From positions 310,001 to 374,000 of the forward strand of contig MCGT01000001.1 of the NCBI GenBank assembly GCA_002104935.1: DNA of 64,000 nucleotides, in the 5' to 3' direction. The DNA is from Hesseltinella vesiculosa (Eukaryota; Mucoromycota; Mucoromycetes; Mucorales; Cunninghamellaceae). Shown here one piece after another: positions 62,767 to 63,974 of this stretch (positions are counted from its first letter, which is position 1; each line of letters opens with the position of its first letter). The notes under the pieces were generated by a model that was not told the DNA's origin, did no database searches, and saw nothing but the letters and a program-made list of their open reading frames with translations. The position numbers and the translations under genes are program-made.

Positions 62767-63974
62767 CTAAACAGGAGGGTCACTGAGGACTTGCTGTAGC
62801 ATGGAAAGCATGTTGCCCAAGGCTTTCATCAGTGAGGGGTCTTGTTCGTCGCGTCGCCCATGTTCCCATCGAGACCGGGCAAAATCGATCAAACGGACGT
62901 CGCATAGCTTGGGTTCCAGAGGCTCGTCTACTTCATCTTCATTGTCTTGTTCCTCATCTTGATCTAGAGTGGCTGCGGTTGGCTGGCTGTCGTGCTGTTT
63001 GTCCTCGTCTAGATAGCGTTGCCAGATTCTTTGCGCAGCATCCGCATCACCTTCATAGACCAGCAGCAGCGACGATGCGGTCAGGTGCAGCTCAGGATGA
63101 TCCATTAAAAAATCCATGATTTCCTCGATGGTGTCCATAAAATGTTCGACAATCCATTCGATTTTTTTCTTGTTGAGTGGTAGGGTGGAGGTGGATGTGT
63201 TTTTGAGAGGGACGCGTCGACAATGAAGTGGCAGGCCGGTGTCGTCTGCGCGATGGTCTGTGAGCTGTCCAGGATAAAAGAACGAAAGCAACCCTTGTAT
63301 AAAGTTGTCCTTGGTGCGATCCCGTCCATATTGCTTTGGGTATACAATGTAGCCATGCTCTTGCGGTTGAAATACCTGAAGTGAAGGGTGTCAAAGAGCA
63401 TGACTCTATTTTTGGCCGTGTGATATTTTTAATAACCTTCATGCCTGATATCCGTAGCCCCATCGATTCCGTGGTGGTGCCTTGTGCATTTCTGATCATT
63501 TTTGCTTTTTTCTTCTCGTCTGCAGTATCTTCATAGATATGATAGCCCAGCTTGATATCCACAATGCAAGGCTGGACAAACCCACTGACGATGTTTTCTA
63601 AGCAAAGGTGATGTAAAAAAGAAAAAAAAAAAAGCGAGTCAAGGTTATGGGCTACTGATGCATCCATGAAAAAGGGTAAAGAAATTAAAAAAAAGGATAT
63701 GATCTAGATCGGCAGTAGGTGATGGGTTGTCGAGTCGTGGTAGCGATGTAGCTTGCTCATCCTTGTTCAGCATCTGGATTTCCTTGTCGGTTGCTTGGCG
63801 CAATGTGCCATAGCACTCTGGGATCCAGTCTAAAAAGTCGTCGTGTGCCTGGGCTTGCTCGTAAAATAGCTGTTCTTGATCACTGCATGGTTTGATGATC
63901 AGTAGATCGTGCGTCGAGAATTGCAGTATGTTGTCGTGGCCAGCAACCTGGTTGTCAAATCGCTTGAGATCCAT
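62767..63974 (-). CDS. ARG82: Inositol polyphosphate multikinase (Arg82/IPMK family)
   Basis: Phosphorylates inositol trisphosphate and tetrakisphosphate on the route to IP5/IP6 and pyrophosphates; also a nuclear transcription cofactor in yeast. Three exons on the minus strand: 63974-63701, 63612-63437, 63375-62767; 352 residues. Motifs: N-terminal QVAGHDNILQF, the family signature PCIVDIKLG (PxxxDxKxG), TASSLLLVYEGD (SSLL) and the metal site VRLIDFARS. An acidic insert (DQDEEQDNEDEVDEP) precedes the last motif. The first intron is best explained as U12-type AT-AC (63613-63700). An alternative GT-AG choice keeps frame but inserts Phe-rich residues and loses the conserved LCLENI lead-in. Start is the ATG of MDLKRFDNQ. 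Confidence 0.93.
63613..63700 (-). other. Probable U12-type AT-AC intron
   Basis: Read on the minus strand the intron begins ATATCCTTT, an exact match to the U12 donor consensus, and ends TTTTTTAC. AACCTTGAC inside it matches seven of nine positions of the U12 branch consensus TTCCTTRAC, about 25 nt before the acceptor. Splicing joins DLDH to HLCLENIVSGF in frame. Confidence 0.68.

What the first reader, a model, noticed from the sequence alone, without database searches (positions are those of the whole stretch)
63613..63700. AT-AC (U12-type) intron in a fungal inositol multikinase gene
Seen: ATATCCTTT at the donor, CCTTGAC core of a U12 branch site, AC acceptor, and a join that keeps frame and yields the family-like LCLENIVSGFVQPCIVDIK run. 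Known: the minor spliceosome is absent from most fungi studied but its components have been reported in zygomycetes such as Rhizopus and Phycomyces. The donor has no GT within the conserved region, so the ordinary spliceosome has no good alternative. If right, this organism still runs a minor spliceosome.
Basis: partly seen in the sequence, partly recalled or inferred. Interest (0 to 1): 0.8.

Follow-up and report, generated by a model that had tools for sequence, protein, structure and literature searches.

The report
Minor-spliceosome intron in a Mucorales fungus
A gene for an inositol-phosphate kinase in the mould Hesseltinella vesiculosa carries a rare AT-AC intron of the kind removed by the minor spliceosome, and the same genome still holds parts of that machine and other introns of this type.

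Summary
On the minus strand, window 63700-63613 is an 88-nt intron with a perfect U12-type donor (ATATCCTTT), a CCTTGAC branch core and an AC end. It interrupts an inositol polyphosphate multikinase gene in phase 1. The AT-AC-spliced product (352 aa) is letter for letter the public protein of Hesseltinella vesiculosa (Mucorales). It fits relatives better than nine other readings tried. The nearest GT-AG alternative (63655-63598) loses the conserved LE and scores 17 bits lower.

The 27-Mb genome has U11 and U6atac RNAs above Rfam's cut-offs, a probable U4atac below it, and the minor-spliceosome protein SNRNP25. U12 snRNA was not found. Four other AT-AC introns of the same build lie in genes for prefoldin 5, importin-9, TBC1D20 and a CNH-domain protein; for the first three, solved homologues align without a gap across the join.

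Protein records of Absidia repens and Phycomyces blakesleeanus read 'D-IL(F/S)' at the same junction, which is what a retained ATATCCTT donor would encode. This hints that the intron is old in Mucorales.

Minor introns in Mucorales are already in print, so this is a new member of a known kind. No RNA reads were available.

The parts
63701..63974 (-). exon 1 of the inositol polyphosphate multikinase gene (ATG at 63974), ending after the first base of a codon
   Evidence: aligns to relatives and to the solved IPMK 2iew
63613..63700 (-). AT-AC U12-type intron, 88 nt, phase 1
   Evidence: spliced product identical to public protein P0001
63692..63700 (-). U12-type 5' splice site ATATCCTTT (followed by five more T)
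   Evidence: the genome's U11 5' end can pair with it over 8 positions
63638..63644 (-). branch-site core CCTTGAC, presumed branch A at 63639, 26 nt before the intron end
63613..63614 (-). AC 3' splice site
63437..63612 (-). exon 2; after the split codon it reads HLCLENIVSGFVQPCIVDIK
63376..63436 (-). second intron, ordinary GT-AG (GTTATT...TTCAG), 61 nt
62767..63375 (-). exon 3 to the stop codon
   Evidence: Pfam IPK 143.2 bits for the whole protein
63598..63655 (-). rival GT-AG intron (GTAGCC...GCTTAG), 58 nt, not favoured
   Evidence: In frame but 450.1 bits against 467.3 for AT-AC, and it replaces LE by K

Best explanation
63700-63613 (minus strand) is a U12-type AT-AC intron in the IPMK gene of Hesseltinella vesiculosa. 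U11 would recognise the AUAUCCUUUUU donor and U12 the CCUUGAC branch site. U6atac, delivered with U4atac, would then replace U11, and the intron would be cut out in phase 1 to restore the IPMK frame. Shown here: the sequence elements, the frame and homology, identity with the public protein, U11 and U6atac genes, SNRNP25, and other introns of the same build in this genome. Inferred (the steps are established knowledge of the minor spliceosome, recalled): actual splicing in cells, the role of a U12 snRNA not located here, and common ancestry with introns in other Mucorales.
For: Elements in place and in frame. The AT-AC protein is identical to the public record P0001. It has the best profile score of ten readings: AT-AC 467.3, next 462.9, GT-AG 63655/63598 450.1. 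No gap against the solved IPMK 2iew across the junction. U6atac 56.3 bits (cut-off 33), U11 62.3 (cut-off 39), U4atac 39.9 (cut-off 53, E 2.4e-4). The U4atac and U6atac candidates share 9 perfect complementary pairs; 7 of 2000 shuffles reach that. SNRNP25: Pfam 67.8 bits, aligns to 8r7n chain B. PDCD7 26.1 bits, cut-off 27. Of 100 inspected RTATCCTTTTT sites (IPMK included), CCTTRAC lies 20-110 nt downstream of 9 and in the 90 nt upstream of 1. Prefoldin 5, importin-9 and TBC1D20 align gap-free to solved chains across their AT-AC joins. Read-through D-ILF and D-ILS in two relatives.
Against: No RNA reads. U12 snRNA not found. SCNM1 and U11-48K profiles give only chance-level matches. Branch-to-acceptor distance of 26 nt and a long T run are unusual as I recall U12 introns. 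A looser 9-mer branch score showed no excess downstream over upstream in the 100 sites. Of five motifs tried, CCTTRAC (9 against 1) and CCTTRAY (11 against 3) showed a clear excess, CTTRAC and TTRAC a small one, CTRAC none. So Fisher p 0.018, or 0.035 without the IPMK site, is not corrected for choice. Profile scores alone do not separate the AT-AC model from two neighbours that differ by one residue.
Confidence: 0.95

Rival explanations
1. The major spliceosome removes a 58-nt GT-AG intron 63655-63598, and the ATATCCTTT stretch is coding exon.
For: It keeps the frame and has a T-rich tract and TTAG end. GT-AG is the common type, and intron 2 of this gene also has an untypical donor, GTTATT.
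Against: It gives HILFFNFFTLFHGCIKNIVSGF instead of the conserved LCLEN, scores 17 bits lower and differs from the public record. Its donor GTAGCC lacks the usual +5 G (recalled).
Confidence: 0.03
2. An AT-AC intron removed by the major spliceosome, as a few U2-type AT-AC introns are (recalled).
For: Long T tract and a branch site that also fits YTRAY; U12 snRNA not found.
Against: The donor is the full U12 consensus. U11 and U6atac exist, and sister introns share ATATCCTTTTT and CCTTRAC.
Confidence: 0.02

Closest known systems
U12-type AT-AC introns of Rhizopus oryzae and Phycomyces blakesleeanus (PMC2846911, passages and section 11 read)
   Same: Mucorales (placement recalled); minor snRNAs present; few introns per genome (Rhizopus 3, Phycomyces 17 by the Burge method)
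   Different: Other species. The word 'inositol' is absent from the paper's main text; its intron list is in a supplement not seen
Minor introns of Rhizophagus irregularis (205) and Basidiobolus meristosporus (249) (PMC10639083, passages read)
   Same: Fungi outside Ascomycota and Basidiomycota with minor introns; in Rhizophagus all four minor snRNAs and SNRNP25 are reported
   Different: Many more minor introns than were found here; Rhizophagus consensus features said to follow animals and plants closely
Minor spliceosome RNAs of Lichtheimia corymbifera (PMC4133162, passages read)
   Same: Mucorales; four of five AT-AC splicing RNAs found; U12 of basal fungi said to be structurally reduced, which may explain why the Rfam U12 model found none here
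   Different: U4atac not found there, while a probable one is found here
Blastocystis minor introns (PMC10639083, passages read)
   Same: Strong AT-AC bias (196 of 253)
   Different: Unrelated stramenopile; very short introns

Membership tests
U12-type (minor) spliceosomal intron | Donor RTATCCTTT at the exon border | tested here: met
   ATATCCTTT 9 of 9 at 63700-63692
U12-type (minor) spliceosomal intron | Branch site of the TTCCTTRAC type (recalled) near the 3' end | tested here: met
   CCTTGAC core 7 of 7, but AA instead of TT before it
U12-type (minor) spliceosomal intron | Short branch-to-acceptor distance (10-20 nt, recalled) and no strong polypyrimidine tract (recalled) | tested here: inconclusive
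   26 nt and a T run here; with the AC acceptor I chose for each, the seven other ATATCC candidates with CCTTRAC span 12-27 nt
U12-type (minor) spliceosomal intron | AC end (AT-AC subtype) and frame-keeping join | tested here: met
U12-type (minor) spliceosomal intron | Host genome encodes the minor snRNAs | tested here: inconclusive
   U11 and U6atac over cut-off, U4atac below cut-off, U12 not found
U12-type (minor) spliceosomal intron | Minor-spliceosome-specific proteins | tested here: met
   SNRNP25 over cut-off; PDCD7 just below; U11-48K and SCNM1 not found; 65K, 35K, 31K and 20K not tested
U12-type (minor) spliceosomal intron | Intron removed in RNA by the minor spliceosome | not testable with these tools
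   No transcript reads available; the public protein agrees with removal
Inositol polyphosphate multikinase (PF03770) | IPK domain over Pfam cut-off and alignment to solved IPMKs | tested here: met
   143.2 bits, cut-off 22.2; 2iew E 1.1e-19

The most novel reading that the evidence does not exclude
In this lineage the minor spliceosome has narrowed to a small set of nearly uniform AT-AC introns (ATATCCTTTTT donor, mostly CCTTGAC instead of CCTTAAC branch, often a T tract), perhaps with a matching change in U12. The IPMK intron would be an ancestral Mucorales minor intron that gene callers have mis-modelled in several species.
Probability: 0.3. Interest if true: 0.5.

Novelty: new member of a known kind. 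Interest (0 to 1): 0.36.

Why it matters
It adds a Mucorales species whose genome looks able to run a minor spliceosome and names genes that would depend on it. IPMK sits in inositol phosphate signalling, and prefoldin 5, importin-9 and TBC1D20 serve basic cell functions (recalled). A fungus with few, similar minor introns would be a simple system for asking why the minor spliceosome persists. The apparent read-through peptides in deposited Absidia and Phycomyces proteins suggest that AT-AC introns are mis-annotated in public fungal records.

Tried and rejected
U12 snRNA: the Rfam model found nothing, and no control genome rang, so that answer does not show absence. A 16-mer from the conserved U12 5' region gave 131 hits against 159 for the reversed control; 100 were listed and 30 cut out as loci. 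cmscan of 20 of those 30 found no U12, and the 30 contexts read by eye did not look like U12. A 14-mer gave 85 hits against 77 for the control; I looked only at its two exact hits, which are not U12. So a U12 gene among the unread hits, or one unlike these motifs, is not excluded. The U4atac/U6atac duplex energy was uninformative: 27 of 400 random windows did as well. Only the perfect 9-pair match stood out. The loose branch score did not separate downstream from upstream. L069 (the only GTATCC site with CCTTRAC downstream) is not convincing. L030, L050, L053 and L104 have open joins but no Pfam match, so they are unresolved. The TBC1D20 peptide had no TBC match in Pfam either and rests. L032 and L042, the two sites with a full loose score, looked like chance to me. 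DNA of relatives at the IPMK intron was not at hand: the collections offered hold viruses, metagenomes, prokaryotes, phages, plasmids and E. coli, and I did not search them for it. An early Pfam call failed because the frame was wrong, and a first model started one base off (corrected).

Full report
What is there. On the minus strand, after the ATG at 63974, a first exon runs to 63701 and stops after the first base of a codon. Then follow ATATCCTTTTTTTT... (63700), CCTTGAC (63644-63638), a long T run, and AC (63614-63613); the next exon begins at 63612. The join gives LDHHLCLENIVSGFVQPCIVDIK. A second, ordinary GT-AG intron lies at 63436-63376, and the gene ends at 62767. The 352-aa product is an inositol polyphosphate multikinase: Pfam IPK 143.2 bits against a cut-off of 22.2. 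It aligns to the solved IPMK 2iew (yeast Ipk2, species recalled; E 1.1e-19) without a gap across the junction.

Is it more than chance? The donor 9-mer occurs once in the window, about what shuffles give (1.05), so the motif alone proves nothing. Its place does. By my arithmetic about 0.001 such motifs are expected in the roughly 120 bases of one strand where an intron must lie. A CCTTRAC branch core then follows 56 bases on.

The public record. A protein search with the AT-AC-spliced product returned P0001, Hesseltinella vesiculosa, at 100% identity and coverage, under the name 'SAICAR synthase-like protein'. A script confirmed that it is identical letter for letter. The species is a Mucorales fungus of the Cunninghamellaceae. 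How the depositors made their gene model was not seen.

Alternatives. I enumerated in-frame GT-AG, GC-AG, AT-AC, AT-AG and GT-AC pairs around the junction and scored ten readings, including intron retention, with a profile of relatives. AT-AC 63700/63613 came first (467.3 bits). Two AT-AC neighbours differing by one residue scored 462.9 but lack a U12 donor. The GT-AG rival 63655/63598 scored 450.1 and retention 125.6. The profile used 15 of the 28 relatives in the alignment, picked by me among those with an intact junction (P0005, P0006 and P0010, also intact, were left out), so it leans towards LCLEN.

Minor spliceosome in the same genome (27.05 Mb, 85 contigs). U6atac scores 56.3 bits (cut-off 33) and U11 62.3 (cut-off 39). 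In the 14 control genomes U6atac and U4atac rang in none; U11 rang in three at E up to 10, none over its cut-off. The U11 5' end AAAAAGGG can pair over 8 positions with the donor. The U4atac candidate scores 39.9, below its cut-off of 53 (E 2.4e-4). It has 9 perfect complementary pairs with U6atac, which 7 of 2000 shuffles reached. The protein SNRNP25 is present: 40.8 bits for one exon, 67.8 for the joined exons, and E 4.9e-11 to the chain named U11/U12 25 kDa protein in 8r7n. PDCD7 reached 26.1 bits against a cut-off of 27. U11-48K and SCNM1 gave only chance-level matches. U12 snRNA was not found, which read only part of the motif hits. A paper on Lichtheimia says that U12 of basal fungi has an atrophied third stem and a shorter last stem (PMC4133162, passages read), which may explain the miss.

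Other introns of the same build. RTATCCTTTTT occurs 168 times in the genome against 77 for the reversed pattern. I inspected 100 of the 168 (those listed), the IPMK intron among them. CCTTRAC lies 20-110 nt downstream of 9 and in the 90 nt upstream of 1 (Fisher two-sided p 0.018, or 0.035 without the IPMK site). Other motifs: CCTTRAY 11 against 3, CTTRAC 12 against 8, TTRAC 21 against 15, CTRAC 9 against 13. A loose 9-mer score showed no excess. Split by first base, 8 of 62 ATATCC sites and 1 of 38 GTATCC sites have CCTTRAC downstream; that difference is not significant (p 0.15), so the AT-AC bias is a lead only.

Five of these AT-AC joins restore conserved genes. One is IPMK itself. Three more run gap-free across the join against solved chains (human, species recalled): prefoldin 5 (6nr8, E 2.9e-13), importin-9 (10sm, E 2e-6) and TBC1D20 (4hl4, E 6e-4). 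Pfam agrees for prefoldin (43.5 bits) and the importin-beta N-terminal domain (32.9 bits) but shows no TBC domain for the short TBC1D20 peptide. The fifth is a CNH-domain protein (29.9 bits, cut-off 26). Three further joins (L030, L050, L053) and L104 (CCTTAAT) stay open in frame but have no Pfam match. The single GTATCC case, L069, is not convincing. Of the eight ATATCC cases with CCTTRAC downstream, six read CCTTGAC and two CCTTAAC.

Relatives. In the alignment of the 29 closest proteins (one unnamed), Absidia repens P0007 reads LDDILFLCVCVCHLCLEN and Phycomyces blakesleeanus P0026 reads LPDDILSL at this exact junction. A retained phase-1 ATATCCTTT donor after a G would be read as D-I-L-(F/S/...), so both look like annotation that ran into the same AT-AC intron. 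Other records start late, lack the region or differ at this junction (P0017, P0020, P0022, P0024, P0027, P0028, P0029). This is suggestive only, because the DNA of those species was not at hand. Two paralogues in this genome (L001, L005; IP6K-like by my recall) read straight through the position; L002 and L003 were not checked on their coding strand.

What is known. Rhizopus oryzae and Phycomyces blakesleeanus have a few U12 introns (PMC2846911, passages and section 11). Rhizophagus and Basidiobolus have hundreds (PMC10639083, passages). The Lichtheimia paper reports indications of a functional minor spliceosome. Searches for Hesseltinella with spliceosom-, IPMK with U12-type, minor introns with Mucoromycota, and U12-type with intron and Mucorales each found no paper in the held library. 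Of 12 papers with Hesseltinella vesiculosa and genome I saw the listing of 10. That library lacks most subscription journals, and intron databases were not searched.

Verdict. The observation and the interpretation both hold. It is a new member of a known kind. The small set of AT-AC introns leaning to CCTTGAC is the part worth following.

Noticed in passing
L063, L036, L098, L038 (G000 contigs C12, C5, C19, C5): AT-AC introns in prefoldin 5, importin-9, TBC1D20 and a CNH-domain (perhaps VPS39-like, recalled) gene of the same genome
   Followed up: partly
L030, L053, L050, L104: Further candidate AT-AC introns with open in-frame joins in genes not identified by Pfam
   Followed up: partly
alignment A1, P0007 and P0026: Deposited IPMK proteins of Absidia repens and Phycomyces blakesleeanus appear to contain translated intron at the same junction, so these records are probably mis-modelled
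   Followed up: partly
L009 1501-1627 and L008 1501-1639: U4atac candidate below Rfam's cut-off whose 5' region is complementary over 9 bases to the U6atac of the same genome
   Followed up: partly
branch sites of the AT-AC introns (L014, L030, L036, L038, L050, L053, L063, L098): Six of eight ATATCC introns or candidates with a CCTTRAC core read CCTTGAC rather than CCTTAAC; whether U12 changed to match is unknown because U12 was not found
   Followed up: no
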